This document shows positions 18,791 through 61,900 of a stretch of DNA of 64,000 bases, piece after piece (the stretch's first letter is position 1; each line of letters starts with the position of its first letter). The translations under genes were made by a program, and so were the position numbers. The stretch comes from Stictocephala bisonia (lineage: Eukaryota; Arthropoda; Insecta; Hemiptera; Membracidae), in the NCBI GenBank assembly GCA_035578905.1, contig JAQJVL010000059.1, positions 2,015,636 through 2,079,635 on the forward strand, in the 5' to 3' direction. The notes below the pieces were generated by a model that saw only the letters and a program-made list of their open reading frames with translations, did not search any database and was not told the origin of the DNA.

Positions 18791-18804
18791 TTAACCCTTT
18801 ACGA

Positions 18805-18834
18805 CCCAGTGTCCATAATAATTATGGACAGGTT
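18805..18834. promoter_or_regulatory. left subterminal repeat of piggyBac
   Basis: GTGTCCATAATAATTATGGAC directly follows the left terminal repeat. A similar CACTGTCCATAATTATGGAC lies at 21,528-21,547 next to a second GCGACC. Terminal plus subterminal repeats of this kind are the transposase binding sites in piggyBac. Confidence 0.7.
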
Positions 18835-19209
18835 ATTTTCCCGTATGATGCAAAATAAATACTCAGTGTTGCAAAATGAAAACCAGCTGTCAATCTAAAT
18901 AAACAACTGGAATTTGAAAAAAAAACAACAGAAACAGCTGATTTAGTTGTATTTGACCCAGATGAATAGGTTTCTCCAAGATGGATGATGTTTTTCTCTG
19001 TGACAGGTCTATGTAAAATAACAAAAATAGTAATATTTAATAGACTCTAAATGTTATAATAGTCTGATCTTTGAAAAGAAGATAAGTTAATGAACAGTAA
19101 TAAATATAATTTGTGTTAGTGTTGATTTATGTATTATTGTTGATTTTTGCTAAAATGTTATGTGCATAATTCTGGACAATGGGCTGTAGTGTAACATTTG
19201 GTAACCAAA

Positions 19210-21319
19210 ATGACTTTTGAGAATTTGAGGTTATGTATGTTTGTTTACCTGTTTTATGAAGGCTTTTGGTGTTTCAATGTGGATAAAAGTAAACATTTAC
19301 AAGCAAAAGACATCTTAGACATTATTGAGAGTGGAAATATATCTGATTTGGAGTGTCTCAGTGATGAAGAAGATAATGATAAGCTTGAAAACAATACAAA
19401 TGACCTTTTGTTATTTGATGACCTTCCAGACGAAGATGTCTTTGATGAAGATATATCACCAGATGATGATAGTGATATTGTTAAGCCCGTAAGTAATGAA
19501 AAAATTCCATTATCTAACAGTAATTCATCAGAAAAGATTAAACCTACACCTAGTGTGTCAGTAGAATGTAGGCCTATGTCTAAAAATCACAGCCCAGTTA
19601 CAGACACAACTAATATTCCAACCATAGCGAGGAAAACTAGGATTTCTAGAATTTATGATCAAGCACCAGTAGCAGAACCTAGCACTTTTAGTAGATACAT
19701 GGAAACTATAAAACTGACTAAAAGTGAAAATATATCGTGGGTACGACAGCAATTTGAGAGGAGTATTTTTCACAATATCACAGTGTGTAATAAGGAAACT
19801 GTTACAAATGTGGATGACAATGAACCATGGTCTTATTTTTCAAAATATATTACCAGCGATTTGATTGAACAGATTAGAGAAAAAACAAACATGTATGCTG
19901 CACAAAAAGGTGCTGCCAACTTTGGACTCAAAATAAGTGAAACAAACATATTCCTTGGTTTGTTATTATCTGTAGGAACTCTAAATTTCCCAAGATTGAG
20001 AATGTATTGGGAACATAATTATAAGTTACCACCCATGTTTGAGAAAATGAGCAGAAATCGTTTTTGTTCAATTTTAAAAAACTTGCATCTTATAGACAAT
20101 TTGGCAATTCCTGAGAACAACAAAGATAGATTTGTCAAATCAAGGCCCCTATACGATGCAATTAGAAGACGGTGTCAGCAACTTCCTGTTGAAGAATTTG
20201 TTTCTGTAGACGAGCAGATGATTCCGTTTACAGGAAAACTAAATGTAAAACAATACATTAATGGAAACCTACACCGTATGGAATAAAAAATTATTGTCTT
20301 TGTGGGAAATCTGGCTTACTGTATGACTTCATACTTTATCAAGGGCCGAACTCCGAATTGGACGCTGTACTAGTGGAAAACCTAGGACAGCTTCCTACAG
20401 TCGTATTGCAATTTGCAATGAGGAATCTTTTGTTTGAACCCCATGCTATATTTTTTGATAATTATTTTTCATCTTACAATTTATTTGAAGCTCTGCGCCA
20501 ACTGAACATAAAAACTGCTGGCACTGTCAGATTGGACAGATTTGGAAAAAAAAACCTGAAGAAAAATATAGACACTAGGCCCCCACTTCAGCCAGAAAGT
20601 GAATTTAAAAAAAGGGGACGAGGCGCATGTGATGAAATAAGAGATCAAGCCAACAACGTAGCTCTTGTGTCATGGTTTGATAACTCCATAGTGACTGTCG
20701 CATCAAATTTTATAGCGTTTGGGAATCCAAAAGAAGTGAGAAGATGGAATAGAAAGAATAAAGAATATGTCAATGTTGAGATGCCTGAATTAATTCACTA
20801 TTACAACACAAATATGGGTGGTGTCGACAAACTAGACCAGATGATAAGTTACTATCGGACTTTTATAAAATCAAAGAAGTGGACCCTACGGATGATTTGC
20901 CATGGATTAGACTTGGCAATTGTGAACTCTTGGCTGGAGTATAAAATTGATGCTGAGAAGATTTTGCTCCCGAGAAAATGTACAATGGATCTTTTAAAGT
21001 TCCGAACTTCCATTGTGAATCACTTCATACTTGTAGGCCAACCAGCGAACCAGCTGTAGAGCGAAGGAAGCGTGGAAGACCTGCACATTTAGAAGAACAG
21101 CCACCAGTAAAGAAAAGGGGATTGCAGCAGGTTCACCCACCTGAGGAGGTCGTTCTAGACAAAGTGGACCATCTTCCACGAATGGACGTCAAACCTGACT
21201 CTACAAGATGTAAAAAACCGGGATTTAAAGGGAAAACTCATTTCTTTTGTACTAAATGCTCAATACACCTGTGCCTAACTTCAAAAAGGAACTGCTTCCT
21301 TGATTTCCATTCAAAATAA
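19210..21319 (+). pseudogene. piggyBac transposase, two frameshifts
   Basis: The order is: an acidic N-terminus (SDEEDND, DLPDEDVFDEDISPDDD, ~40-95); the DDE_Tnp_1_7 region with FLGLLLSVGTLNFPRLRMYW, FVSVDEQMIPFTG (first Asp), AIFFDNYFSSYNLFEAL (second Asp), MGGVDKLDQMISYYRT (third Asp) and a KKWTLRMICHGLDLAIVNSW helix; and a C-terminal Cys/His finger (RCKKPGFKGKTHFFCTKC, HLCLTSKRNCFLDFH). All three catalytic Asp survive. One frame break lies near 20,280 (after NGNLHRM) and another near 21,055 before RRKRGRPAH. With only two lesions it looks younger than its host hAT. ATG at 19,210 is the first in frame, but a later start is possible because family members usually begin close to the acidic region. 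Confidence 0.9.
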
Positions 21320-21527
21320 TATGTACTGCAATTGTCACTTCAATACTTGTTATTTCTCAAATTATGCATAAAATTTAGGCATATTTTTAACTTGTTATAT
21401 ATCAAACCATTGTGTAAACTATTTTTGACTGTCTGCAGTATGTTATCCAAATTTAAAAAGTAGTTTAATTGTAACAAAATAAATATTTTATACTGACTTG
21501 TATTTTTGTTGTTGGTTAATCGCGACC

Positions 21528-21547
21528 CACTGTCCATAATTATGGAC
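21528..21547. promoter_or_regulatory. right subterminal repeat of piggyBac
   Basis: CACTGTCCATAATTATGGAC is the inverted partner of the left subterminal repeat, about 130 bases inside the right end. The asymmetry (adjacent on the left, internal on the right) is like that of classical piggyBac. Confidence 0.65.
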
Positions 21548-21683
21548 ATTGACTAAAATATCTAAAAAAATATTAAAATAGTTAAAAACCATTTTTTAGT
21601 TATATATTTGCAAATGAATATGTCTTGCCAACATTTGAAAATATTTGCAGGTAAATCAAAAATGTTGGGTCGTAAAGGGTTAA

Positions 21684-22357
21684 TGAAAAAACCTGACGGC
21701 GTTGAAGAGCCAAAACTACCTCGCCAGAGGTTTGTGCCAAAGAAGCTTGAAGAGATCAATAGCTCAAAACCTCACGAATTTAAAAGTCCCATGGAATATT
21801 TCCGAAGAATATACCTCGAAGTGATTGACACGGTGAAATGTTGTGTAAATGAAAGATTTGAATCTACTGGACTTAACAAAGTACTCATGATTGAGAAAGA
21901 GTGTGTCTCAGCTGTCAACGGAAGTAGTGTAAAATCTTTAAAAATTGATAAAGTACAAGAGTTTTTCGCAACTGACTTGGACTCTGACAGACTGCAGCTT
22001 CATCTGTCAATGCTAGGAGACATCGCAAGGCAGAGGAACATTCCCTTAACCACGATGGGAGAAGTTAGAAAGATGTTAGTGGATGATAAGACCATTCGAG
22101 AGCTTCTCCCAGAAGCTTACACATGTGTGAAGCTCCTCCATGTTGTGCCTATGACGACTGCATCAGCTGAGAGATCGTTCAGCGCACTACGTCGGCTCAA
22201 AACGTATCTGCGATCGACAGTGGGCCAGAAGAGGTTGAATAATATTGCAGTACTGAATGCGCATCAAGCTGTATTGGATAACTTAGATCTAAGACCGATT
22301 GTGAACGACTTTGTGAAAGCTAATGCAGTAAGACGTACAACATTTGCATTGTTTTAG
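21684..22357 (+). pseudogene. hAT transposase, part 2 (C-terminal dimerisation domain)
   Basis: The frame continues in phase across the piggyBac target site: TTA of the preceding part is followed by ATG-AAA-AAA. It reads PKLPRQRFVPKKLEE, then PMEYFRRIYLEVIDTV, LSMLGDIARQRNIPL and the hATC block LLHVVPMTTASAERSFSALR, LKTYLRSTVGQKRLNNIAVL. The S-A-E-R-SFS and R-L motifs define the dimerisation domain that closes hAT transposases. The frame ends in TAG at 22,355-22,357 without internal breaks, and the 3' untranslated part runs to the terminal repeat. Confidence 0.9.
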
Positions 22358-36542: not shown

Positions 36543-37225
36543 TAAGGTTATATTAAAGGGAATTAGGCCAGGAATCTATATATTAGGAGAGATAGGACAT
36601 CAACAAACTTACCTAAGGAGATAAGTCAATTAACACCTTGCAGTAGAAAACATATGAAGATAATTCACATGGAACTTTTCTCAGGTGAGTAGAGAGCGAG
36701 ACTGAATTAGCTCAATATATTGCTGGGTAGGTGGCAATGGTAGGAGTTGTATATCCACAGAGCAACGCTCAGGTTTTAATGCAGGTTTTTCTAGTTTGTT
36801 TATGTGAAGTTTGTTTATGGTTGAGGGGTAGGCAATAAGTGGTAAGTCATCTAACTGATATTCAGATTAGGAGTGTCACAGGATTTACTCAGAAGGATGG
36901 AATTAGCACACCAACGGATAAATAAATATTTGTACCCTCCTGATTTGAACATCAAATAGATTTCTTTCCTACCCCTCAACCATCAACAAACTTCACATAA
37001 ACAAACTAGAAAAACCTGCATTAAAACCTGAGCGTTGCTCTGTGGATATACAACTCCTACCATTGCCACCTACCCAGCAATATATTGAGCTAATTCAGTC
37101 TCGCTCTCTACTCACCTGAGAAAAGTTCCAGTGGCATTGAACATTTGTGTAATATAATTTGACTTCTCTACTACAAGGTCTTAGTGGACTTGACTTCTCA
37201 GGTAAGTTTGTTTTCACTATTTAAG
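36543..37225. mobile_element. foldback element, copy 1
   Basis: Two arms of about 165 bases (36,669-36,833 and 36,966-37,128) are reverse complements with only one or two mismatches around a spacer of about 130 bases. Outside them lie further inverted blocks: AGGACATCAACAAACTTACC on the left and AGGTAAGTTTG on the right. A diverged relative lies at 42,025-42,400, so this is a dispersed family. It is non-coding. The left end may start at GGTTATATTAAAGGG (36,543). Confidence 0.75.
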
Positions 37226-40900: not shown

Positions 40901-43900
40901 CAGTTAAGCTCTTGGACAGATTGCAGCATGCTCAAAACCATTGTATCCGTTTTATTAAGACATTAAGATCACATTAATACCTTTTAAATTACCGTTTTAT
41001 TCTATAATAAGTCAAATAGACTCACTACTTTGCATTAAATTTTATGTCAAAGGGCTCCTTCTTTCCTGCTGTAATCTTTACCTTACACAACACAGATCTT
41101 GACTACTGTCAATTCCAGATCAAATAACCTCATTTTTTAGTAATTGAGTTATACTTAATTGTGACTTTGGAATAGTAAAACTGACAATGGTAGAGAGCTG
41201 ATGGTAGGCATCGTCGATTTCGGACAATGGTTGTAAATTTTCAAGTCAATACAAAATATACCAATTATTGTGTATCTATTATTAGGTAATATTGATTAAC
41301 ATTAGGTACGTGCACTAGTAGATGCATATACGTGATTCAATTTATCAGAATTAATTTTGTTTTATAGCCTCTATTAGTATATATAATTTCATCCATCAAA
41401 ATTGTTCCACGCTATTGCCCAGCTAGTATTGGGCGAGAAATTAGAACTGCTCAACTGGAAAGCAGTGCATAGAGATCGGTTTCGAGCTTTTAAGCAACTG
41501 TTCTAGCAAATCTATAAAGCAGTACGTACCTCTTGGGTAATTCTAAATGAGCAACAAAACTATTGACAGGACTGTCATGAATTTGTTACCTCCCAGCTAA
41601 CACACTTTAATCAGCTATCTAAATCTTTAATTTAAAGTTATATTACATTTATGTCAAAATAAGATTTTATTTATTGTTAAATATTTTATAATATTATATT
41701 ACAAAAATATAACATAATTCTTTTGTTTTTATTGAACTTTGTTAATTTTTTTTAGGTGTAAGAGAGGAATCTCTGGTCTTACTCTAACCAGTTATTCAAT
41801 TTGATAAATAATTTAACGTACCTCTCAGCAGTGTGTGAGTCTGTAGCAAACATCAGAGGTGGCTGACCTGGGTGGATAAGTTTAAATACAGACTTGGACT
41901 CACTACTCAACTCTTCAAATTCGCACTGAAATAAAAACAGTAACATGTGAAATAAAAGTAAAATATAAATTTACCCTTCAATTTGCAAGTTGCAATTTAA
42001 AATTTAAAAAAATATGTATAAGTATATTAGGAGATATAGGACATCATAAAACTTACCTAAGAAGACAAGTCCACTAACACTACAGTGGTAGAAAACAAAT
42101 ACAATAATAGCAGATTCTGCACAAATTTTCTGCACCACTGGCACTTTCTTCAGATGAGTAGGGAGAGAGGGAGAGAGAGACTTAGCTTTGACTATTGCTG
42201 GGTTAAGAGACTGATTTAGCTTCCATTATCGCTAGAATAGCTTCCAATATTACCTACCAAGTAATCTCCCTATCTCTCTCTCTCTCTGCATTTGTTTACT
42301 ACTACTGTGATGAGTGGACTTGTATTCTTAGGTAAGTTTGCTGATGTCCTATCTCTCCTAATTTACTAATTCCTGGCCTAGTGCCCTTTAACCTAACCTA
42401 AAATATGTATAAGAATAATTTCCCGGTTGTTTGTTTAAATTTAGATTATGCTGTCCCCACGTTGTAAGAGTCATCACTCTGTTACCATTTTTAGGAATTG
42501 AGATTGCAAATGTGATTACTTAAAATATCTTAGTCACGATGGTTTTGACGCTCAACCAATATCAATATAATTTACAGGCAGGTCTCGGTTAAACAAAATT
42601 TGATAAAAATGTAGTTCATTCAGTTTACAGGTGGTATCAGATGCCTGAGATAAATTTATAACTAAACAAGTTCTTTTTGAATGTGAATTGAAAGAATAGA
42701 ATTTAGCTTCTGTGTTTATAAAACATTTGATGTCATAATTTTGACTTTACATAACAGAATATATACAAAAATACTACTGTACTTGGATTTTTAGTAAATT
42801 TTCTGACACAAATAAAATGTTTTTTTTAATAATAATAATAATACAATCCATACTATATGACAAATAAATAGTAATTATGGAGTAGGACTAGCTACTATAA
42901 ATATATGATTTAATCACTATGACAGGGAATTCAAACCTTCCCAGTCCCATCCTGTACTTATTAGTCTCCTCTACTGATGTGTCAGTTCTAGTTTTTTGGT
43001 TCAGTTCTTATTCAAAACGGTTCTCGGGTCTGAGTACTATGTAATACCTTTACGCCCATGAATCAAGGTTTTCGAGTCTGAGTACTTTGTAATACCTTTA
43101 CGCGCATGAATCAAGGTTTTCGGGTCTGAGTACTTTGTAATACCTTTACGCTCATGAATCAAGGTTCTCAGGTCTGAGTACTTTGTAATACCTTTACGCC
43201 CATGAATCAAGGTTCTCGGGTCTGAGTACTTTGTAATACCTTTACGCCCATGAATCAAGGTTTTCGGGTCTGAGTACTTTGTAATACCTTTACGCCCATG
43301 AATCAAGGTTCTCGGGTCTGAGTACTTTGTAATACCTTTACGCCAGTGAATCAAAGAATAATGTGTGTTCGGTCAACAACAAATTCAGAAGACTATGGTT
43401 CAATGTAATGGGTGGATGTAATTGGCCTATAGATTTTAATTAAATAAAGAATAAATTAGTATAAATATAGTTAATAATAAAAAATTATAGTTATTTACAA
43501 TTAATGATAGAAAAACAACTACTCTTTTCTTGACTGTGATCATGAGAGAAAATGAACGCCACAGATTCATTGAAAACAATGCAGCCTATAATACAATTAT
43601 GTTCTTAGAAATTATATATTTTGTTTTAAATATAACAGATACTAAACTATTTTAATTTTTGTTTGTAATTGCCAAAGAAGTCAATGCAATCTAAAACTTT
43701 CAATTAAAACTTTGTAAAAAAAAAAAATATTCTCTCAATAATAAACAATACTACAATTATTCTCAATGAAGTGAATTGAATTATACAACACATTATTTAA
43801 GGAAGATATCAAGCTTATCATCTCAATACTTGCAGCTCAATAGTTCACACAGTAGAGAAGTGCGTAAACACCGAACGTGAGGAAGGGAAATGCTGGGACC

Positions 43901-46900
43901 AGGAATGTTTTTGTTTATTATTAGTGAATTGATTTTAGGACAGGAGTAATTGGTGTATTACGGAGTTTACTAATAAGCCAGAGTATTTACTGGTCAAAAT
44001 AAACATGGGTGGACTCAACAAAAGCTGAATGGCTTTTACTGACATTGACAATTTCTAATCATGTAACATTTTCTTTTCAAAGGGATGATAACGAATAAAC
44101 AAATTTATTTCCTTCAAAAACATAACATTTTTACAAAGTAAAAATAGAAATTGAGTAGCCACTGTTGCTAGTAATGTGGCCAATAGAAAAAATTAACTTA
44201 ATTTAACTAAAAATTAAAAAGAAAATTGAGTCTAGCTAGTTTGATTGTAAAATAAACAACTGATTACAATAGAACATAAAATATGATGTTCTTTCTTTAG
44301 CAATTATAAGTATTGTATGGGCGGGCGGGTGTGTCAGTACCACCATACGTATATGGGCATGTAGGTGGGTCATTACCACCGTACGTGTATGGGCGGGTGG
44401 TTGGGTCAGTACCACCGTACGTCTGGGTGGGCGGGTAGATCAATACCACAGTACGTGTATGGGAGGGTGGGTGGGTCAATACCACTTTACCTGTATGGGA
44501 GGGCCTGTGGGTCAATACCACCGTACGTGTCTGGGTGGGCGGGTGAGCTGGGTGGGTTCATACATAGTGGCCTGTAATTATGGGCAGGTATTTTCTGATA
44601 TAAATATATTTTGTTTATTTTCTGGCCAGATACTAATGTTCATCGTTCTGCATGAAACATTTCTGATATGAAAGCTCATCTTCTCCTTTTTGTTTCTGGA
44701 TCCTGAACGAAGAAACCTTGGTCCTGGTTATTTTGTCAAGATCTGACAGAATGGAGAACTTACTTGATGAATCGGAAAATCCCTAGTCTCCTCATATCTA
44801 ATCTTTAAATGCTAGGTAGTATTTTTCAAATATCAACCATTCAAGAAAACAATATATTATTTCATGGCATTCAATTGGTTAAATAATATAAATTTGAATT
44901 AATAAAAATATATTTTGAGATTTTTGAGTACTGATTATGATTCAGGGTGCAACTCAGTCTAAAATAAAACAAATATATGTTTAGATATATAATCAAGCCA
45001 TAAGTTAGATTGAGAATAGATGTAATAATGCAAATTACTAATTCAAGTGTAATACCTCAGGCACAGGTTCCACTGTGTATCCCAGGACTGGGATACTCTG
45101 CAGTGCTACAACATCCTCTGACGCCTTATAAACATAGAGGACTTGCTCCTTCAGCACAAACCATGAGCGTTTCCATCGAGTTCGGGACCGCCGAAGCAGC
45201 CATCCACTGATTTCAGATCCTGAGTCACCAGCGGTTACCTGGTATTTTTTTCGTGACATTGATTCTTTTCATAACCAATAATATTATATTATTTTAAAAA
45301 CTAGATTTGTTTTAAGGATAATATTAAAACTTATAAAGTCCAATAATTATATGTACTGACTCCGAGTTCAAAATAAAGAAAAACATGTAGGCATGTTTTA
45401 TTGTAAACGCATATCATGACATTTTTCAGTTGTCTACACCAATCATTTGAAATTGTGGCAGAAATAGTGAGGCACCTGAGAATATGCCACTGGATTTAAA
45501 GTCTCTACTAAACACAATGCACAATTTTTTACTGAAGTCTTGTTCATCACATAAGTGTATCAGTTTTCTTTTAATATGTTGAATGTGGCGTACATTAATT
45601 AACGTAGCGCTGCAGTGATACGCCTGGTGGCCTATGTTGGATTATGTAGGGCTCCTGTTTCAAATGCATTGGTTTAGGAGTTAAGCTATTGCCGAGAACG
45701 GTGTGTCACTCACCGCTTGTTGTGCCAGTTTTTGTGTTCGAGAGTAGTTCGTTTTCCATTCCTGCCATTTTTGTAGGAGTGGTGACTGTACAAAGTGATA
45801 GTGTTTGGTGGTTAGCCATTAAGGTGTACAATTATTTAGTCTTTCAGCATTCAACGTGTTAACCCCCAAAACAACCTTAAAAATGTAAATATCTGCACAT
45901 TTTTTTTTAGGTTGACAGTATTAGATCTACTTGCAATCTACTTTTTAAAATAAACATTACAACACTCGGAAGTGTGTAGACACTTATTTCAGCCAGTATG
46001 TGACAGCTTCAGTGTTTCATTGCACAATGTTGAGTGACAGCGCATTGTAACCATGTAGACATAACACAACAATAATATAATGTGTATATTGCCTATACAT
46101 AAGTGATTACTCTTTTCATAAATAAATAAGAAAGTCATATATGATTGAAAATTTCATTAACAAAGTATTGAATGTTGTATACGTGCATTATTTATTTAAA
46201 TGTACACCAGTAACGTGTGAAAAGCTTGGTAAAAAAATTGGTTGTTTTCTGTTCTTCTCATAACTGTCATTTTGCATTTTAAATTGGTAGTAAATTTCAT
46301 GACACATTATAGGTATCGCATACGAAAATAGCAAATTTAATTAGGAACTGCCTACATGCTTGGCTGTCATTGTTGCTAACTATGATTTCTTATTACTTTA
46401 CGAGGGTCGTCCAGAAAGTAAAGAACGATTGTGCATCACATGCGGCGCCGATCTCCCACCACTGCAACTGCGTGCACGCTAGTTACCTCTGGCTGTCCTG
46501 TCAGTGTGAGCTGAGTTTCATTCCTGTGCGGTCACGCATCTTTGCTCTGTAAACTTTCAAAATGGCAGCGCCCATTGAAAATCCCGCCAAACTGATGGCA
46601 ACTGTTTTTTGGGACTGCAAAGGTTTAATCCATGTCGAGTTTTTGCCAAGGGGAGAAACAATAAATTCAGAAGCCTATTGCGAAACCCTTCAAAGACTCA
46701 GACGTGCAATACAGAACAAAAGACGTGGCATGTTGTCAAAAAAAGTGTTTTTGATCCACGAAAATGCTCGACCCCATGCATCGGTACGAACCCAGCAATA
46801 ACTTCAAGGTCTAAAGTGGGAAATTTTTGGACACACTCCCTATAGTCTGGACCTCGCGCCTTCAGATTACCATCTGTTCCCGAAACTGAAAACATTCTTG

Positions 46901-49900: not shown

Positions 49901-52900
49901 TTTTTAGATGAATTCAAATTTGTTCAATTTAATCTGTGAATGAATAAATTGTGCCGAAATCATATCCGGTACAACATTACACAGTATATTTGATGTGCTT
50001 AACTTATTCTTATTTAAGATTGTATGACTTTTCTTGAATATTACATCACACCCTGATAATTTATTATTTACCATGGGAAATTTAAATACGGTACTAACAT
50101 AGAAATATAATCAAACCATTATACAGCGTGGTCACAATTAAGCCTGGAACCCCTTTTTTAACTCTTTCAGCCCCAACACCCGATATATTGGACGTGTAGT
50201 GTTAGGGATTCTGAACCGTCTTATAGTTTATGACCTGGTACAATTCTCTGTCTGTGATCACCGGTATTTAGTTAGTGGACTATGATTTATTCGAGGTGTC
50301 CCAGCTATAGTGGCTTTGTGATCAATGATATTTAGTAAGTGGACTATGACTTCTTCGGGGTGTCCGAGTTGTGGTGGTGTCGACCACTCCCGATCGTCCA
50401 GTGCCAAATGCTAGAACCATTAACAAAAACTGAAACAGTTTGGTCTGTCAGACAACGAGTGCATCGAGAGGTGTACAGAGTAAAATGCAATCTCGCCTCG
50501 ATCCTGTGTCTGATACTCGGCAACGACCTGTCTCGTCGGTATCTGAATATGATACGTAAGGACGTTATGGACTTATCCAGGCTTTCGTATCTTATCAACT
50601 TCTTCTACAAGAGCTACTACCTGTCGAACGGTGTCGACCGACAGCGGTTATACAAACTGTTTCCGAAATTGAAGCGCATCAATTCTCGCACGCTCTCAAA
50701 GACAACACGCGATAAGTCTCGCTTAAGGATCCAATCGGCAAAATACAAGAGTACAGGACGATGATCGGTCGGCACCTTGTACGAAGGCAAACAGAACGTA
50801 CAACACAATTTGGTTGGCGCAGAGGTACACGACATACTGGAAACCAATATCACGACAAACATTTTACCAGATTAAACGGTGCGTGAAATGTGTATTCACC
50901 CGAGATGAACTGTCCAGTGAAGAGGTACACGATAAGTTTTTCGACTATTTCTACGAGACCAGCTGGTACGACAACGACAATGACTGTGCGATTAAGAAAT
51001 GGTTCCTCAAGCAGGATCTGACCTGGAAGAAGTTGAAACGTAACTACTGGCGCTACGTTTATCTGTTTTTGGATGTACAGAGACGACTGTGAGAGGTGGA
51101 AAAGGAGAAGTCTTTCAACGTGTTCACCATCTTCAGACACAGTCTCAAGTGCGTTCAATACAATTTCAACAGTCTGTACAAGTTGATGTGACATACTGAA
51201 CGACAGTACTGCTAAGTATCGCAGGCAATGTTCAAGGAAAACAGGCCGGCCACGTGGTGTAAGCTGTTCGACTTGGGACAACTTGCCAAGAAATTTGGTT
51301 ACTGCATCAGCATTGATAGTGTCACCTTTAATCTGTTGATGAACAGATACGTGAAGAAGTTGAAAGGGAATGCATTTAAGAAAAGAAAAGCTGAACCGAA
51401 GGTGTGGAAAGTTTCACCTTTGACGGTATACAACTCCCACCGTGTGATAACCGTCGATTCCGGCGCTAAGACTCCCATTGTCACATGTACCAGATCGAGT
51501 GAGTCCATGGGTTTCACATACCGGACGCTAAGCAAATGTACAGTGTCGTCTTGGAACCAGGAACATCATCGTAGAAAAAAAGCGGTTGGAAATTACACGC
51601 GAGATTGATGGTGAGGTGTGACTCGATATAGAGTATAGATATTTCCGCGAAAAGCTCACATGTCATTGAATACACGCTGTTTCAAATGAAATGGTTCGAC
51701 CGAAAACAGAGCATGTACGAAAGTAGAAAACTGCAACGTCTCAAGTTCAACAAGTACAGTACATGAACGATCAAAAGTGTATAGAAAGGATAGTGGACAA
51801 ATATTTCAACAGCGAAGTTCGTAGCAAGAGAACACTTGTCGTTTAGGGTTCTTGTGTGAATTTCATGAACTGGTCATTGTTCAGAGGACAACACAAATAC
51901 TTTCATGATGAGTTGAAAAGAGCCGTGAGGAGGTGTGCTGGCTAGGACATGATAGTATACAACGAATTGTACACCACCAATACACGTAGCAACTGTTACG
52001 ATCGGCTCGCTACGCAAATGCTTTATTTTTTTTATATATACATATATACATTTTTTTTTCTCTTTCATAATAACCCTAATCAAAGGCATTTAACATTTTC
52101 TTGTTTTAAATACCATCCAAAATTGTTTAGTTTTTATTTTTATTAAATTGCCATAACTCATCAAATTGTGTATTTTATTCAGTTTGAATTTTTTATTTAA
52201 TCCTGAATAAGAGTAGTCCATTAGTTTTAGTATTAATTGTTCATTGTACTGTTTAAGATTGAGCTTTTTTTTATTCTCTATTTTTATTTTTGAATTAAAG
52301 AACTCCCTTCCACGCACAAGCCTTGGGCTTATGTGGAAGGTACTCACATATAAAACATGTAGATTTTTTTCTTTCTTTTTTTTCATCTACCTTTTGTATA
52401 ACCTTGTAAGTGATATATATCGATGTATTTATTTTCTTCATATAACTATGTATCTATGTAACCTTATGATTTATATTTGAGTGAGTAAATAAAGATTTTG
52501 ATTTTGATATCTCAGCACCGTTAGGTTTATTGTGATATATGTCGTAAGGGTATGTACAGAGACAAAAACGGAGCAAAAAATATATTGTTAAAATTTGAAG
52601 AAACAACAACAACGATCAAAAACGTCTCTGACTTCTGTCGTCCTCGTCACACCCTACGAGAAGGCCATAAGGTCGAAAATCGTAAATCTCAGATTTCATC
52701 TTTGGGGCTGAAAGGGTTAAATCACAACAGAGAAAACCATGAAAGTTCACACACCATTACTGGTGACAGTAACCTACATTTCTGTTCAATTACCGACTGC
52801 ATGACGCCTTTGGCGGACGTCCCACTAGGAGTCAGAACAAAATATTTAATGAGAGTCTATTTTAAGTTGTACATCAATTTAAAGGTTGAAAAAAATGCTG

Positions 52901-55900
52901 CCAAACCGAACTTAAAAAGGTTGATCCAGTCGGAAGAAATTGCTGTTTGAATTTTAAAACTATTCCAAACTGTAAAACATTAAGTGTTACAAGTTAAATA
53001 ATGTTTAATTACCTTAGATCAAGTAAGTGTTCAAAATGTCCTCCTCCAATTGTCTGACAATGTCCTAGACGGTTGTAAAAGCCTCCCACTGCATTTTGAA
53101 GGTAGTCACGAGGAATATCTTGAGCTTCTAGATACAAGTTGTCTTAGGTGCACCAAATCTTGAGGCTTACTATAGTAAACTTTATCTTTGAGTTATCCCC
53201 ACAGAAAAAAAATCAAGCGGAGATAAATTTGATGAATGAGCAGGCAACTCTACTGCACCGCATCTTCCTATCTTGTTTGAGGGAATATTGTATCCAAGTA
53301 TTGTCAATTTCAACGCCATAGCGTAGTGGTGCTCCATTTTGTTAGAAATAAATTGTTTGGAATTGTGGGCAATGTCTAGCTTGTAGGGCGGGAATTATCT
53401 CATTATGGAGTATTCCTAAGTACAAGACAGCATTTAAATTACCACTGATAAAAAATAAGCCTACAATTTGGTTTCCAATCATACCTGCCCAAACATTAAG
53501 GTTTTGTGGGTGCTGTGTGCAAGTCTCATCTTTCTGGTGTGAGTTGCTGTTGTCCCAATACCGACAATTATGCCTATTAACAGTGCCATTAAGCATAAAT
53601 GTTGCCTCATCTGAGAATAAAATATTGTTCAGAAGTATTTGGTTTCGGTTAATTCTATCCATCATACCTTCACAAAATTCGAGCTGTCGATCGAAGTTGT
53701 CTTCGTTGAGTTCCTGAAACAGATATACTCGGTAAGCCTTAAAACCTGATTTTTTAAAAACTTTTCTGATTGACTCCCGAGACATTCCATGTTCTTGAGC
53801 TGATGTTCTAACCGATTCAGTGGAATTTTTGACAAAAAATTGAAGAACATCTACTGATGAGAGTTCATCTTTCACTGTTGTTGGTCGTCCAGTTCTGACA
53901 TGATCCTTAACGCTGCCAGTCTCTTCAAAATGAGCAACGGTTTTAACTGCTGTTGACTTGGAAATAAAATTTCTGTCAGGAAAACTATCGTTAAATAAAT
54001 ATGTTACTGCATCATATGATCGTACACTATCTCCCCATCCACGCATCATTAGCAGTGTTATTGTTTCACATTCACAAAGTGACATAACGGTAAATAACAA
54101 AAACAAAATTATACGATTTTAAAACTTGAAACCGAATGAAAAACTTCTTTTATGTGCATAACTAAACCTGCTGAAAGCTTCAGTGCAACTGCTTACAAAA
54201 GATATAAAACTGCTGTTGGATTCAAATTCAAATTTGTGGAAAACCCAAAGAGCCCACTTTCACTTTCTAACTGTAGTCATGTTTTTTTAATGTTATTGAT
54301 GCATTCTTCCTGATTTAAATTAACACATTGGCAGACAACGGGAGGAGGACATTTTGAACACTTACTTTGATCTCAGGTAATCAAACATTGTTTTAACTTG
54401 TAACACTTATGATCAGTTTCACCAACCTTAGTTAAATTTGCTCTAACCTTGGTTAGTTTGATCGTGGTTAAAATATTTAATCATCGTTAATATTAATGCG
54501 TTTCATCATCAACATTTTGGTTAAATTTAAAACCAGAGATCAAATAAATATATTCAAAGAAGACCATGCATCTAACAAATGGACAACTCTGATTGGATGA
54601 CTGTTGTAAGAAAAATAAGCTAACTACCTAGCGACTATGACGTGAGTTTGTTTACATCGAATAGGTTATGTCAGTTGGGATATTCCTTACTAACAAACTG
54701 TGCTAGCTAGCATTTTAAAGTAAAAGTGAAAAACAGGAAAACAATACTTATTATATCTTAAATTAATCCAATTTTAAATCTTGAGTTGCTTATTATGGTA
54801 GAAGTAAAGAGAGATAAAGGCTGAAGTTTCAAACCTGATGAGAAAGCAATAGGCCTACTACTCAACATAACTAGGCCTACACAATTTACTTATAAAAAGA
54901 GAATGAAAAAAAAAACTGACGGTAAAGTTTTAAAGATAATAGAAAAATCTCTGAATGTTATTACTAAAATTGTTAACAGGTGACATTTTCTGTGTCGCTG
55001 TCCGCCGATCATAATTTGTTACCTCTCTTGCACAAAGTCGTAGGTTAGTTTTTCAGTTGCAGTAAAAGGGTAATTCATATTTTTGATTTTCTAAGGCATC
55101 GTCGGTTTGAGAAACTAATTTTACAACCACCTCCTTTGATAATCTAAGGCGTGAAATAAACTGGATATCACTTGAGGCTATTAATGGCCTCGTCTAAAAT
55201 AATAGCCTATCCTTTCAGGTGCTATATTTTCTATAAATTTCAATATAGGCTACATCTCTTCAGTTTGAATTTTACTTATTAATTAGTTAAGAATCTGACA
55301 AACAATTAACAAAAAAAAAAAATGATTTGTAACAGAATATATCTATTACATTATTATTAACCTCTTCTGTACGTAAAATTAAATGAATGAAAAGTCAACA
55401 GATGCAGACGATTATTGTTACTTAACCATGATTTAAAGTTTTAACTGGACCACACGCTAACCGAGGTCGGCGAAACCAGCCATTAATGTTTTACAATTTG
55501 GAATACTTTTAAAATTCGAACAGAAATTTCTTTCAACTGGATCAACTTTTGAAGTCCGGTATGCAACATTGTTTTACTGAAAACAAGACCTGTAGCATTA
55601 GTTTACTGAAACTAAGACCTTTCAATTGATGTACAACTTGAAATAAGCTCTCATTAAAGATTTTGTTCTGACTCCTTGTGGGCCGTCCCGCAAAGGCGTC
55701 ACGCAGTCGGTAATTGAACAGAAATGTAGGTTACTGTCATCAGTAATGGTGTGTGAACTTTCATGTTTTCCTCTGTTGTGGTTTAAAAGTTGAAAAAACT
55801 TTTAAACGACGGACTTAACTGTCACCCTGTATACTTAGTACTAATACAATAGTGATTATTTTTCTTTAATGTTCTAAATAATATTTGGGAAATGTGTGAC

Positions 55901-58900
55901 TTACTTCCTTCAACCGCTGTGGTATATACTTCTTAATTTTCTTTCCAGAACTCTGTCCAATTTTCTTAAACGTAGAGCGGATTTCTAACAATTTCAATTT
56001 CACTTCCTCCTCTTTCAAACCCAACTCTTTCTTGATTACGTCAGCCATGTCATCAAATTCTGCGAATTCATACATTTGTTAAATAATTGAAGAATTTTTT
56101 GAACAATCAAAGTAAACTATTAATGAATAATGAATTTTTATTAAAAAAAGATGACTTAAAATTACAAAGTATGTATGGAGTAATGACTAGCTACAGTAAC
56201 AAGTTACATGGCTAGTTGACACTAAACAGATAACAATGGACCTCTAAGTCTGGCATCAACTATGCTTGACCTTACAGTTAGCAGTGATGATTGTGTACTA
56301 TACACTAACTAAAAATGAAACAAAACAAGAAATTCCAAATACATCATTTGTGACAGTTAGGTAGTCTTTGTGTTACACATATAAAAAGTTGAAAAAAAAT
56401 ATAGAAATGTTTTCAAAACTTTTATATTACTTCAATTGTATTTTGTATCACTGCACCACATGCTGTTGATTGCCAGTCAACACTCCAAAGACTCAGTAAT
56501 AACAATAAACTGGGTGTGCACGACTTCAACACATGATGTTGATTGCCAGTCAACACTCCAAAGATTCGGTAATACACAATAAACTGGTGTGCACAACGAC
56601 TTCAACACATGATGTATTAAATTCAATAAACTATGCTTTTAATACATACTGCAGATGTATGGGTGGGCGGGTAGGTCATTACCACTGTACGTGTTATTAC
56701 TAAGCTACTCTGTTGTTACGCAGTTTGTTTGTTTAACACATTCGCTGCTGCGACACAAGGAGTAGCGTATTGTGCGGCGTTGCCTTGCACCATGACCGCA
56801 CGCGCGTCGACATATTTCAGCATAGCGATAAGTAAAATTTATACATGGGCAATTCATGCAATATTTTTATTAGTTCATTTGTCATGAATTTACATATTTA
56901 ATCCCCTTTAAACCACTGGTTCATTCTATTCCAGTCTATTTATTGCCAATAGTTGTTCTTTGCTGTTGTTGTGGGAGAGCAACTGGTCAAAATTATCAAT
57001 ATTTAATTTGTTACAGTTAAAATAATATATTTCACAGGCAAAAAGAAGAACGTATAAAATAATGGATAACAACTTAATTATTGTTATTCACTATCATGGT
57101 GAAAAATGATGACATCCATATAAATGATTACTTTTTTTTAAACTTACGATGAGTTGACTGAATCGTTGATTTGATACATCAAATCGCATTGATTTTTCAA
57201 TGCTTTTCAATGCATTGCACATCCCTAATTGCCAGTGAACATTCCAAAGACTCAGTAATAAACAATAAACTGGGTGTGCACAACGACTTCAACACATGAT
57301 GTTGATTGCCAGTCAACACATCAAAACATCAATATTAATTGTGTTTAAATTATGTAAATCCAAAAATAATGTTCTGTTTTTGACAACGCTAAGTACTGTT
57401 AATAGAGCCTTGTTGATCCATCTAATTTTAAAAAAACATTCCACTGTAAGTTTTACAAGCTCATATATGTTTGAAATTCTATCTTATGGGTAAAAAATTA
57501 TAAGTATTTTTCTGAATTTAATGTTAAACACACATACTATACTTAAGAATTCAAAAAAGTCCTCTTTACTTGGGTTTTAGGTTGTCCAACCATCTGCCTA
57601 TAGTCCATAAGCTTTTTAAAGCTAGCAACTTCAAAAATAAATTCAAAGATTCCTACGACTGAAATATTATTATTCCCTTGGAGAGCTGCTGGATGATGTA
57701 GATTTACCGTTTATTGGATAAAAATGTACTATATATACATTAAGTTACTGTTGCATTAACCTTCTGGGACGCGCCTCATTGTACAAAGTACAACAGTCAT
57801 ATTTTTTTTAATTTTAACCAGCATAATTTTGCACTGTAAGATTGGTAACCGCGATGTATTCCTCAGCCACTCGCAACTACACACTTCCTTCATCGGATAT
57901 TACTATGGTAAAGGTCAGCCAGTTGTCAGGGTTAAATCGAGCTGATTCAGGGTTGTTGTACTTTATACAATGCACACGTTCTTGTGCAGAGTTTTTTATC
58001 CAGTAAATGTTGTTAAAACTATCTAAATAGTCATTTTGTGTGTTTTATGTCCTGTGAACATTGTTAGAAATACTATATGTACAGTTATTTTGAATGTTAT
58101 CTGTGTGTTTTTATTTATTAGTCGTTAATTTTTTCAGCAGTTTAGATTTTAAAATTTGAAATTCGGCAAGTTTATTTCTATCATTACCTTAATTTAAGTT
58201 ACTGAGCAACACATTTCTCCAACTTTGTTAATAAAACAGCAGTATCATTTTTAAAGAAAAATACATTTTTTCTATCCTTTACATTATTTTTCATTAATCA
58301 GTATAAAAAAGTGATTAACACACTTAACATTATTTTCCTAGTGTAAGACAGAATTACCTGATAAAAGGTACTTGTAGCATGAAATACACACTCGGACAGG
58401 ATTGAATTTAGAAATAAGCATGGGCGCCTTGTAATCGGAGCAGTCACTGCAGACAACCTTCACAAATACATTATTGTATTAGCTCCTATGTAGTGATAAC
58501 TGGTTTTGGAATGTTTCATTAGTTACTAAACAATTACAAATAATAAACCCTCCCCGTGTACCTAAAAGTGTTAAGGGCTTTTACTAAAAAATAGTAAATA
58601 TTACAAAGGTATGACATGTTATATATCTCTCAAATTACATAAAAAAACACACACATACAAAATAAAGATATATTGACAAAAATTAAATGTACTTATATCC
58701 TTAAACACAATTTTTTACCTATAAAAAGTTTTCAAAGTTTGGACTATTGTCACAAGCGTTACAGTGAACCTAGAAACAATTCCAAAATATAACAATTGTA
58801 GATAATTTTGTGTGTATTAATATATTAAAGAAAAATAAAACAAATTGAAACATTAACTCTTTGAGCCCCAGACAAATTATCTAATGTAACTCTGAGAAAG

Positions 58901-61900
58901 CCCAGGCATTTGTGACTGGTAGTGTCTGGGAATTTCCAGCTCAAAATCACATATAACTGCTTAGAATGCCCAGGCCTAAAATGAGAATTATGTAAAATTT
59001 TGGCAAAGAATGTATTACAGCCTTTAAAAAAATGGGCAATCTAAAAACATCTTTTTAAAGACAATTAATCATACTAACAGAAAATTAATTTTATTTGAAA
59101 TATATACATTTGTAAATATTTTTTGAATATTTGTTAGTTAGCAAACATTATTTTAATTTTTTTGTAATTATCAAACTCGGTAAGAATTAATGTTACAGTA
59201 AACACTAGTACTTTTCTTTGTTAAGCATATTTCATAGAGCATATCCTGAAAATTTAAAGAAACTATACTACAATTTTTTTTATACTAAGAATATAATCAT
59301 GTCAATTTTATGCGAAATAATGTAGCCTATAGGTTCGTTTAGTATATATATAAAATAATATTAGTATTTAGTTTTCAGTTTATTTCCATTAATTTAAATA
59401 TTGGAAAGTATACGAGGTCTGTCTAATAAATAAGCAAGCTGAGGCCTTAAAAACTTATTTTGTAAAATTTTGTCTAAAGTTATTTTGCCCCTTCAAAGTA
59501 CTCTCCATTCGTTGCTATGCACTTATTGCATCTTCTTTTTCACTGTTCAAAGCACTATTGGAAGTCCTCGGCTTTTTAGTTTTCTCGCCGTTTCTTGTTT
59601 TATTGTTTCCACATCTTCCCAGTGATGTTCCCTCATGACATTCTTGCATTTTGGGAATAGGAAAAAGTCACAGGGGGCAGGATCTGGCGAATAAGGAGTG
59701 TGATCAAGGATCATGATTGAATTTTCAGTCAGTAACTGGAGAACAATCAATGCTGAATGTGCAGGTGCATTGTCATGGTGAAGGATCCATCCATCGCCTT
59801 GAATCAAATTCGGTTGCACACAATCTTTCAAACGCTTGAGAACCATAAGGTAGAACTCAGCATTGACTGTTTGTCCTTCAGGAAGAAACTCATGATGGAC
59901 AACACCTTCCACATCAAAGAAAAAAAGGAGCATGACTGATATTTGATCGGCTTTTTTCTTGATTTTTTTGGTTTGAGGGTCATCTTTTGCTTTCCACTCC
60001 TTGCTTTGTGATTTTAGTTCAACGTCATACTCATACAAGCACGACTCATCCTATTGAGAAATCCAGCATCGTTTTGAAGTGAATTTTTCCAGTCAGTAAC
60101 ACCATTGATTTTATATTCAAATAGATTTCCCATCCAATGTTAAATTTTGAGTCTCAAAATATCAGCTGTTTTTGTGGTCCATTGTGGAGCGCTAGTGTAG
60201 TCCCATGTAAATGTAATGCAGTTTAAACCAGCTGTGGTTGTGGGCCACACAAACTAACGAAATTACTGCCACAAATATTCCTATTAGATGGTTTATCTAT
60301 TGTAGGTTTATATAATCAATGGTAACACATTCAACTCTTCTCAACTTTTAATCTGACATCAGCAACTTGGGCACGATTTTTTCACACATCTTTTTTAAAC
60401 CCAAATGTTTGGTTAATATTCTGTGCATGGTTGATTTTCCTAAATTCAGTTCATCAGCTATCATTCGGACAGTTTTTTGACGATCAGTAAGGACAAGAGA
60501 CTGCACATAATCGATGTTGTCATCAACACAGGAGGTTGAAGGTGGCCATGGCCTTGCATCATTCATGGCGTCTTGTTGGCCATCTTTAAAACATTTCATT
60601 CACTTGAAAATAGATGTTTTCTTTAGAGCATTATCTCTATAAATAGCCATCAACATTTCATTAATTTCTTAGCAGCTTTTACCACACTTCACCAAAAACT
60701 TGATGTTGATTCGTTGCTCTGTAATTTTGCCAATTTCCATTTTCGGCAAACAGCAAAAACAACGACAAAAGACAGTGACACAAACAGCACAATATGCACA
60801 GCTCGACGATCTGGCAAGCACTGACGGCTCATTGGGTTTCAGGCAACTAGCGCCACTAGTGAGCGGGCTGTAGTCCACGTCATTGCCGCCAGATTGCACC
60901 AGTTCGCGTATTTATTGGACAGACCTCATATATTTTACTCCAAAAAGGTTGATGTAGCTATATGTATCACTAGATTTTAAATTTACACACTAAAAATGTA
61001 GCCTAACTATGTACACTAATAATCAACACTTGGTAAACCAGAGAATAATAAATATATACAGGGTGAGTTACGTAAGGTGTCCTAAATGGATAACGGAAGA
61101 ACGGTGTGAGCTACAATAAAACTGACAACACCAAAACCTACTAAGTCTTGTATGGGGAATTTACTGAAAATAGTTTCATTTCACAGAAAAAATATATTCA
61201 CAGAATATGCCAAAACTCGTGGTTCGGATTCCAAATCTCAAAATGTTAAAATTCAAACATATGTCATATTGTACATAATTTTAAATATCCTTTAAAATGA
61301 AATGTGCTGGTGAAACAATTTTGTAAAAATATTATATTGTTTAAAAATGGCGAACGAAAACATAAAAAATTCTGTCATTTGCAAAAATCACTCTATTTTT
61401 TAAGTTTTTTGCAATACAATATTTAAGCTTAAAATTTCAAGTTATTTAGTAAATTTCCTACAAAATTACATGTTACATGATCACATTTGAACAATCTTTC
61501 GTACCCCCAAATCTTCTAGTTACCAGCTTCTCAACTTTTTCCAAATATTTTAAGAACAAATATTGCAAACAATTTCTCAGATTTACTCATCGGAGTCGCT
61601 TGCATTGTCATGTCCCCTTTTGCGTCCTCTTTGTTGGGGAGGACTAAAATGCACGACAGGTTAGACAAATAAACCAACTTGAACTAATACAAGTAATTAC
61701 AATAGAAAAAACAAACAAACATTTTTAAAAAATTGGAAAAAAAACATTTTAACATCTATAGTGATGTATAATAGATTAATCTTATGTAATTTTTTTTCTC
61801 CTGAACACAAATATGACATAGAATTATTCATACAAAGAATAATAACTGAGATATTATAAAATATAGGTCAGGTTAGTATGTTGACTATTAATACATATTG

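What the first reader, a model, noticed from the sequence alone, without database searches (positions are those of the whole stretch)
50162..52716. Fanzor (eukaryotic TnpB-like nuclease) gene inside a TTAA-flanked transposon in an animal intron
Seen: RuvC-I ITVDSGAKTP, a RuvC-II-like NELYTT, two halves of a Cys4 finger and RuvC-III YRDKNGAKNI, all on the plus strand in the right order, between inverted ends CTCTTTCAGCCCCAA bounded by TTAA. Known: RDxNxAxNI plus C-x2-C pairs define the TnpB/Fanzor family, and Fanzors have been reported in several eukaryotic transposon types; in Fanzors the catalytic Glu is often in the N-E-x-x-T-S motif, as here. Inferred: this lineage rode on piggyBac-type mobility supplied in trans. 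The copy is dead, but it points to a possibly active relative in the same genome.
Basis: partly seen in the sequence, partly recalled or inferred. Interest (0 to 1): 0.92.

Follow-up and report, generated by a model that had tools for sequence, protein, structure and literature searches.

The report
Dead Fanzor inside piggyBac-type transposon
A transposon-rich stretch of a genome, probably that of an insect or other animal, holds the broken remains of a Fanzor-type gene (a relative of CRISPR nucleases) between inverted ends flanked by TTAA that resemble those of a piggyBac jumping gene in the same stretch, so the element was likely moved by a piggyBac transposase.

Summary
At 50,158-52,720 a TTAA-flanked element with 15-bp inverted ends (14 of 15 matching) contains a degraded Fanzor-type gene. 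The broken frames alone hit no curated profile. A read-through finds two relatives: one carries the TnpB/Cas12f zinc ribbon with the Fanzor-type displaced glutamate, the other comes from an insect filamentous virus. The copy is dead: at least four frame changes, at least six in-frame stops, a ~490-bp insert, DSG for DPG, one zinc cysteine lost. The right boundary is fixed independently: flanking DNA is one arm of an inverted repeat whose other arm lacks the element, and homology begins at the TTAA. The ends read CYCTTT, like piggyBac and unlike Kolobok, the other TTAA superfamily considered. Of 1,358 TTAA-adjacent 15-mers in the window, the nearest to the element's right end, after its own left end, are both ends of a broken piggyBac at 18,791-21,683 and one orphan end. 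Mobilisation in trans by piggyBac is likely but inferred. The intron is not shown; an active copy in the same genome could not be sought, as the own-genome search did not complete. Fanzor in diverse transposons is known; no piggyBac carrier appeared in the passages read.

The parts
50158..50161 (.). left TTAA (one copy of the target-site duplication)
50162..50176 (+). left terminal inverted repeat CTCTTTCAGCCCCAA
50253..50377 (+). tandem duplication, two 61-nt copies 82% alike, 64 nt apart; the second copy includes the start codon at 50346
50346..50411 (+). start of the Fanzor reading frame with a CCHC-type zinc knuckle (C-x2-C-x4-H-x7-C), followed directly by a stop
   Evidence: 22 aa aligned to residues 1-25 of P0002, score 60, 0 of 5000 shuffles reach it
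50468..50671 (+). N-terminal block of the Fanzor gene, shifted frame
   Evidence: 42% identity to P0002
50751..51446 (+). middle part of the Fanzor gene (recognition and wedge region by position), three in-frame stops
51447..51476 (+). RuvC-I, ITVDSGAKTP (relatives read VDPGAKTP)
51632..51757 (+). block between RuvC-I and RuvC-II, shifted frame, 62% identical to P0001
51757..52002 (+). RuvC-II region with the displaced glutamate (E of NELYTT at 51964) and first half of the zinc finger (Arg at the first Cys position, 51985); two in-frame stops
52021..52509 (.). AT-rich insert that splits the zinc finger (ends approximate); likely a later transposon fragment, as the relative P0001 has none here
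   Evidence: no second copy in the window at E 1e-3
52510..52602 (+). second finger half and RuvC-III (YRDKNGAKNI), one in-frame stop
   Evidence: 77% identity to P0001
52603..52720 (+). 3' region up to the right TTAA; where a Fanzor guide-RNA scaffold would lie (predicted, no structural support)
   Evidence: RNA folds z -0.04 to -0.83
52702..52716 (-). right terminal inverted repeat CCCTTTCAGCCCCAA
52717..52720 (.). right TTAA
52717..52886 (.). host DNA: arm of an inverted repeat into which the Fanzor element inserted; homology to the other arm begins at this TTAA
55617..55786 (.). other arm of the inverted repeat, 92% alike, without the Fanzor element: an empty-site homologue
18791..21683 (+). 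resident piggyBac element (TTAA, ends CCCTTTACGACCCAG / CCCTTTACGACCCAA, broken transposase 19195-21319), inserted in a hAT-type gene
58853..58871 (+). orphan end TTAACTCTTTGAGCCCCAG; no facing end among the pattern matches in the window

Best explanation
Window 50,158-52,720 is a dead Fanzor-carrying transposon: a broken Fanzor-type gene fills the space between 15-bp inverted ends flanked by TTAA, and a piggyBac transposase supplied from elsewhere likely moved it. Shown: the ends, the TTAA on both sides, an insertion site whose uninterrupted counterpart lies about 3 kb away, and a gene with two relatives that between them keep the Fanzor catalytic layout (DPG in both; glutamate six residues before the C4 finger and RD in P0001, the one that covers that part). 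Inferred from published Fanzor work: the intact ancestor would have made a nuclease loaded with an RNA read from the element's right end, through the right inverted repeat and TTAA into the flank. The flank would be the guide and TTAA the adjacent motif, so the enzyme would cut exactly the empty site that seamless piggyBac excision restores, and repair from a sister copy would put the element back. piggyBac would supply movement, Fanzor retention.
For: Fanzor identity: read-through search finds P0001 (E 3.8e-51) and P0002 (E 1.5e-34). P0001 passes Pfam PF07282 (37.1 bits, cut-off 26.3), matches the end of NCBIfam guided_TnpB (3e-07, 30 bits, below its cut-off of 100), and has D91, E261 six residues before C268, a second CxxC at 292 and D302, the arrangement PMC10711439 gives for Fanzors (passages); it fits the TnpB/Fanzor motif of PMC3627910. 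Transposon: inverted 15-mers next to TTAA, 14 of 15; 4 such pairs in the window against 0.03 in shuffles. Boundary: homology to the other arm of the host repeat starts at the right TTAA (joined flanks 158 of 172 nt). piggyBac type: ends start C[C/T]CTTT; PMC10813416 gives CCCTT as the best-conserved piggyBac 5' motif (passages), whereas Kolobok ends are 5'-RR (PMC9587614, passages). Of 1,358 TTAA-adjacent 15-mers, after its own left end (14), the closest to the right end are two at 12 and one at 11, which by the sequences are the piggyBac right end, the 58853 orphan and the piggyBac left end; all others 9 or fewer. No transposase inside: none of 84 piggyBac relatives hits the element, all 84 hit elsewhere in the window. 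TTAA as adjacent motif has precedent in GtFz1 (PMC10432273, PMC11423790, passages), and reRNA running through inverted repeat and target duplication in insect-virus Fanzor1 (PMC10711439 section 27).
Against: The window's own frames hit no Fanzor/TnpB profile. P0001's spacings (167 residues from DPG to E, 20 between the CxxC pairs) fall outside the pattern PMC10711439 used to find Fanzor-related TnpBs (120-160 and 12-18). The profile of A1 finds no Fanzor in the PDB by sequence. The 3' region folds no better than shuffles (z -0.04 to -0.83), so there is no support for a guide-RNA scaffold. The left flank matches the empty-site homologue only weakly (18 of 23 nt with a 3-nt gap; 10 of 2000 shuffles reach it). 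The two ends differ at position 2. The resident piggyBac transposase is itself broken, and its ends differ from the Fanzor ends at 3 to 5 of 15 positions, so it need not be the helper. Its subterminal palindrome (z -4.26) has no significant counterpart in the Fanzor element (z 0.29). This is a single copy; other copies could not be sought.
Confidence: 0.82

Rival explanations
1. The Fanzor gene is a chance passenger of a non-autonomous piggyBac-type element: carried along, with no functional link between RNA-guided cutting and piggyBac movement.
For: Only one dead copy seen; no transposase found within the element; no significant RNA structure at the 3' end.
Against: The gene fills almost the whole element (50346 to at least 52602 of 50162-52716) and its 3' end lies about 100 bp from the right end; P0001 keeps the catalytic residues.
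Confidence: 0.35
2. A virus-borne Fanzor element: the unit came into this genome from an insect large DNA virus and the TTAA insertion happened once, from viral DNA.
For: The only named relative is from Microctonus hyperodae filamentous virus. Bao and Jurka (PMC3627910, section 12 read in full) report five insect-virus Fanzor1 families with 4-bp TTAN duplications and 13-bp inverted repeats, not assigned to a superfamily.
Against: No viral gene among the 18 other ORF pieces scanned (33 ORFs of 110 aa or more listed); scans of viral contigs with P0001, P0002 and A1 confirmed no relative. Compatible with the main reading rather than exclusive of it.
Confidence: 0.3
3. The ends belong to Kolobok, another superfamily that duplicates TTAA.
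For: TTAA duplication alone fits Kolobok (PMC9587614, passages).
Against: Kolobok ends are 5'-RR and YY-3'; these begin CT and CC, read CCCTTT at the right end, and resemble those of a piggyBac in the window.
Confidence: 0.04
4. The TTAA ends are unrelated to the gene: a Fanzor remnant lies by accident between two piggyBac-like miniature-element ends.
For: An orphan end of similar sequence lies at 58853.
Against: The right boundary coincides with the edge of host-repeat homology; the two ends match each other at 14 of 15, better than the right end matches any other TTAA-adjacent 15-mer in the window (12 or fewer); gene homology starts 184 bp inside the element and ends about 100 bp before the right inverted repeat.
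Confidence: 0.06

Closest known systems
Fanzor-type genes of insect large DNA viruses (P0002, Microctonus hyperodae filamentous virus; Fanzor1 of ascoviruses and baculoviruses in PMC3627910 and PMC10711439)
   Same: P0002 is the only named homologue found and shares the N-terminal zinc knuckle, N-terminal blocks and DPGAKTPIVTC; insect-virus Fanzor1 elements also have short inverted repeats and 4-bp TTAN duplications, and that of SfAV encodes just the Fanzor.
   Different: Those papers leave the superfamily open ('could not be assigned', 'unknown family of DNA transposon'); here the ends look like piggyBac. Whether P0002's locus has TTAA ends was not seen, nor its relation to the ascovirus group.
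Fanzor1 in other eukaryotic transposons (Helitron, Mariner, IS4, Sola, MuDr; PMC3627910)
   Same: A TnpB-like protein captured by a DNA transposon.
   Different: piggyBac is not among the superfamilies its abstract lists as carriers; its one mention of piggyBac is for another nuclease.
Fanzor2* of molluscs and Chloropicon (PMC10711439, passages)
   Same: Encoded by cut-and-paste transposons with inverted repeats and target-site duplications.
   Different: IS607-derived Fanzor2 in two distinct transposon families; relation to this protein not tested.
GtFz1 of Guillardia theta (PMC10432273, PMC11423790)
   Same: Its adjacent motif is TTAA(N), the sequence that flanks this element.
   Different: Its locus is said to seem to lack inverted repeats, with no clear transposase association (PMC10432273 section 11).
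piggyBac superfamily (DDE_Tnp_1_7)
   Same: TTAA duplication, 15-bp ends beginning C[C/T]CTTT, resemblance to the resident piggyBac's ends.
   Different: No transposase inside; a Fanzor-type gene instead.

Membership tests
Fanzor | RuvC-I with DPG | tested here: inconclusive
   This dead copy reads DSG; both relatives read DPG. Met for the lineage, substituted in the copy.
Fanzor | catalytic glutamate displaced to six residues before the zinc finger | tested here: met
   P0001: E261-x6-C268; window: E-x6-R at the Cys position, E kept. P0002 does not reach this part.
Fanzor | C4 zinc finger between RuvC-II and RuvC-III | tested here: met
   P0001 has C268xxC and C292xxC and passes PF07282; the window copy keeps three of four Cys, split by an insert.
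Fanzor | RuvC-III RD shortly after the finger | tested here: met
   RDKNGAKN in window and P0001; whole motif D-X(125,275)-[TS][TS]-X2-C4-X(5,50)-RD fits P0001.
Fanzor | spacing pattern used in PMC10711439 for Fanzor-related TnpBs (DPG-x120-160-E-x6-CxxC-x12-18-CxxC-x4-8-D) | tested here: not met
   P0001 has 167 and 20 where 120-160 and 12-18 are asked. The paper used the pattern to collect TnpBs, not to define Fanzors, so this does not bar membership.
Fanzor | direct profile hit of the window frames | tested here: inconclusive
   None in Pfam or NCBIfam for the six single broken frames of the element given; the intermediate relative hits.
Fanzor | RNA-guided DNA cleavage with an RNA from the element end | not testable with these tools
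   Needs biochemistry; folds of the 3' end not significant.
Fanzor1 versus Fanzor2 | place in the Fanzor tree | not tested
   No reference Fanzor sequences obtained. About 614 aa expected full length and a non-IS607 carrier lean to Fanzor1.
non-autonomous piggyBac-type element | TTAA target-site duplication | tested here: met
   TTAA at 50158 and 52717; homology of the right flank to the empty-site homologue starts at TTAA.
non-autonomous piggyBac-type element | ends beginning CCCTT | tested here: met
   Right end CCCTTT; left CTCTTT, one change.
non-autonomous piggyBac-type element | ends shared with an autonomous piggyBac of the same genome | tested here: inconclusive
   Resident piggyBac ends match 10 to 12 of 15: alike, not the same family; rest of the genome not searched.
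autonomous piggyBac | own DDE_Tnp_1_7 transposase | tested here: not met
   None of 84 piggyBac relatives hits 50158-52720 (tblastn); so not filed as an autonomous piggyBac.
Kolobok | ends 5'-RR and YY-3' | tested here: not met
   Ends begin CT and CC (criterion from PMC9587614).

The most novel reading that the evidence does not exclude
A Fanzor adapted to piggyBac: its RNA ends in TTAA plus flank and its adjacent motif is TTAA, so it recuts the very site that piggyBac's scarless excision restores and turns cut-and-paste into copy-and-stay homing, a eukaryotic counterpart of the TnpA/TnpB pair working in trans. This would give the unassigned TTAN-flanked insect-virus Fanzors a mobility partner and explain why a TTAA-reading Fanzor (GtFz1) exists.
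Probability: 0.25. Interest if true: 0.85.

Novelty: new variant of a known kind. Interest (0 to 1): 0.58.

Why it matters
Why eukaryotic transposons keep an RNA-guided nuclease is open: PMC10432273 (section 11) says the biological role of Fanzor remains unknown. A Fanzor inside a TTAA element is a clean test case, because piggyBac excision restores an unscarred TTAA (recalled) and at least one Fanzor reads TTAA as its adjacent motif. It also offers a candidate mobility partner for insect-virus Fanzor elements with TTAN duplications, which were left unassigned.

Full report
What was checked. The ends TTAA-CTCTTTCAGCCCCAA at 50158-50176 and TTGGGGCTGAAAGGG-TTAA at 52702-52720 match at 14 of 15 positions. 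Among 39,905 TTAA pairs 200 to 6000 bp apart, four have inverted 15-mers with at least 14 matches; 60 dinucleotide shuffles average 0.03 and never exceed one. The four are this element, the resident piggyBac, an A-rich pair at 61725-62086 and a foldback at 36776-37024.

Is it a Fanzor? A read-through of the frames found two relatives with E of 0.01 or less in a database of 5.8 billion proteins, and an alignment search returned the same two; that search sees only relatives that share short exact words and have a similar length. P0001 (338 aa, unnamed 1,143-bp contig, E 3.8e-51) passes Pfam PF07282, Cas12f1-like TNB, with 37.1 bits against a cut-off of 26.3. It also matches the end of NCBIfam guided_TnpB, below that model's cut-off, and a phage transposase family, phrog_506. 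It has D91 (DPG), E261 six residues before C268, a second CxxC at 292 and D302. PMC10711439 describes DPG plus a glutamate six residues before the zinc finger as the features by which Fanzors differ from typical TnpBs (passages), and the longer motif of PMC3627910 fits. Against it: two spacings, 167 and 20 residues, exceed the 120-160 and 12-18 of the pattern with which PMC10711439 collected Fanzor-related TnpBs. P0002 (382 aa, E 1.5e-34) is a hypothetical protein of Microctonus hyperodae filamentous virus, a virus of a parasitoid wasp (PMC10403939, passages; its main text holds neither 'Fanzor' nor a word beginning 'transpos'). It covers the N-terminal part and stops shortly after DPGAKTPIVTC. 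tblastn places the two on the window in six blocks in order from 50468 to 52602, one pair overlapping. The reading frame starts earlier: MTSSGCPSCGGVDHSRSSSAKC at 50346-50411 aligns with the first 25 residues of P0002 (0 of 5000 shuffles as good), so both share an N-terminal CCHC-type zinc knuckle; in Pfam the knuckle of P0002 stays below threshold (zf-CCHC 0.027).

State of the copy. The homologous blocks run through frames 0, 2, 0, 2 and 1, so at least four frame changes, and hold six in-frame stops. That count begins its third block at 50751 and so leaves out one more stop that the tblastn alignment spans, and a stop right after the knuckle. An AT-rich insert of about 490 bp lies between the two finger halves; P0001 has no interruption there. 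RuvC-I reads DSG, and Arg stands at the first finger Cys. A tandem duplication of about 64 bp covers the start region. The gene is dead.

The transposon boundary. The 170 nt from the right TTAA onward (52717-52886) form one arm of an inverted repeat whose other arm is 55617-55786. In the window as it stands the match starts at 52717, the first base of that TTAA. Joining the two flanks at a single TTAA and comparing with the other arm gives 158 of 172 identical nt, two T of the left flank included. The other arm is thus an empty-site homologue, and the right edge of the element is fixed. On the left the match is weak: 18 of 23 nt with a 3-nt gap, reached by 10 of 2000 shuffles.

Which superfamily? 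TTAA duplications are made by piggyBac and by Kolobok, and Kolobok ends are 5'-RR and YY-3' (PMC9587614, passages). The best-conserved start of piggyBac ends is CCCTT (PMC10813416, passages), CCCT or CCCTTT in beetles (PMC12732532, passages). Here they begin CCCTTT and CTCTTT. The same window holds a piggyBac: DDE_Tnp_1_7 at 6.8e-30 and 2.1e-31 in two broken frames, ends TTAACCCTTTACGACCCAG at 18791 and TTAACCCTTTACGACCCAA at 21683. Joining its flanks gives one open frame through the hAT-type gene it interrupts, so it is a true TTAA insertion. I compared 1,358 TTAA-adjacent 15-mers of the window with the Fanzor element's right end: own left end 14, two at 12, one at 11, the others 9 or fewer. 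By the sequences these are the piggyBac right end, the orphan end at 58853 and the piggyBac left end. None of 84 piggyBac relatives hits the Fanzor element; all 84 hit elsewhere in the window. The piggyBac's strong subterminal palindrome (z -4.26) has no significant counterpart in the Fanzor element (z 0.29). So the ends are piggyBac-type but not those of this piggyBac family, and the resident transposase is itself broken.

Mechanism. Shown: TTAA insertion and the gene. Likely: movement by a piggyBac transposase in trans, since no transposase was found within the element. Inferred from published work: insect-virus Fanzor1 guide RNAs extend about 15 nt beyond the target duplication, with inverted repeat and duplication predicted to be part of the scaffold (PMC10711439 section 27, read in full), and GtFz1 needs TTAA as its adjacent motif (PMC10432273 and PMC11423790, passages; one sentence of the second paper gives two motifs in the other order, a later one agrees). 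Put together, an intact ancestor would cut the TTAA-plus-flank empty site that piggyBac excision restores, and repair from a sister copy would return the element. The local test was negative: the 3' region folds no better than shuffled sequence in any of four stretches tried (z -0.04, -0.74, -0.83, -0.65).

What is known and what is new. Bao and Jurka (PMC3627910; [quoted passage not shown] They describe five insect-virus families with TTAN duplications and 13-bp inverted repeats that could not be assigned; their one mention of piggyBac concerns another nuclease. PMC10711439 still calls the lepidopteran and viral carrier an unknown family. The searches 'Fanzor + piggyBac' (11 papers held, 10 listed) and 'Fanzor + TTAA' list 12 different papers; I read passages or sections of five (PMC3627910, PMC10432273, PMC11423790, PMC12324416, PMC12292965), where no piggyBac carrier is reported, and saw the other seven as listings only. 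Searches were seen as listings, apart from the papers named here. The library holds open-licence papers only; a 2023 Science Advances survey of eukaryotic Fanzors (recalled) is not held and may contain such cases. I therefore call it a new variant of a known kind, not a new kind.

Limits. The own-genome search was unanswered in all 13 tries, so copy number, an intact copy and the host are unknown. 'Animal' rests on the transposon content (piggyBac, hAT-type, mariner, reverse transcriptases) and on named piggyBac relatives, mostly arthropod with two fishes. 'Intron' has no support, though short host exons were not sought. Fanzor1 or Fanzor2 is open.

Noticed in passing
18791-21683: A piggyBac element with intact TTAA ends and a transposase broken by frame changes, inserted in a hAT-type (DUF4371, Dimer_Tnp_hAT) gene at 17258-22357; joining the flanks gives one open frame.
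   Followed up: yes
52717-55786: A roughly 3-kb inverted-repeat element (outer arms about 300 nt, 78%; inner pair 52981-53063 / 54325-54409, 91%) around an ORF at 53342-54118 (-) with weak, below-cut-off Tc3-type HTH similarity; possibly one element nested in another.
   Followed up: partly
50346-50411 and P0002 residues 1-25: A shared N-terminal CCHC-type zinc knuckle in this Fanzor lineage; I saw no comment on one in the passages read, but did not search for it.
   Followed up: partly
P0002: The virus protein ends shortly after RuvC-I, so the virus gene may be truncated or split.
   Followed up: no
58853-58871: Orphan piggyBac-like end TTAACTCTTTGAGCCCCAG; no facing end among the pattern matches in the window.
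   Followed up: partly
from 199: At least one of the 84 piggyBac relatives also hits near the start of the window (lowest hit position 199): perhaps a second piggyBac remnant.
   Followed up: no
36670-37130: A foldback of two 169-nt arms, 98% complementary, 123 nt apart.
   Followed up: no
42971-43402: Tandem 48-bp repeat array, open in one frame on the minus strand.
   Followed up: no
2515-2718 and 46372-46581: Two direct copies of a repeat 44 kb apart, 87-95% alike; the first overlaps a Mos1-type HTH ORF.
   Followed up: no
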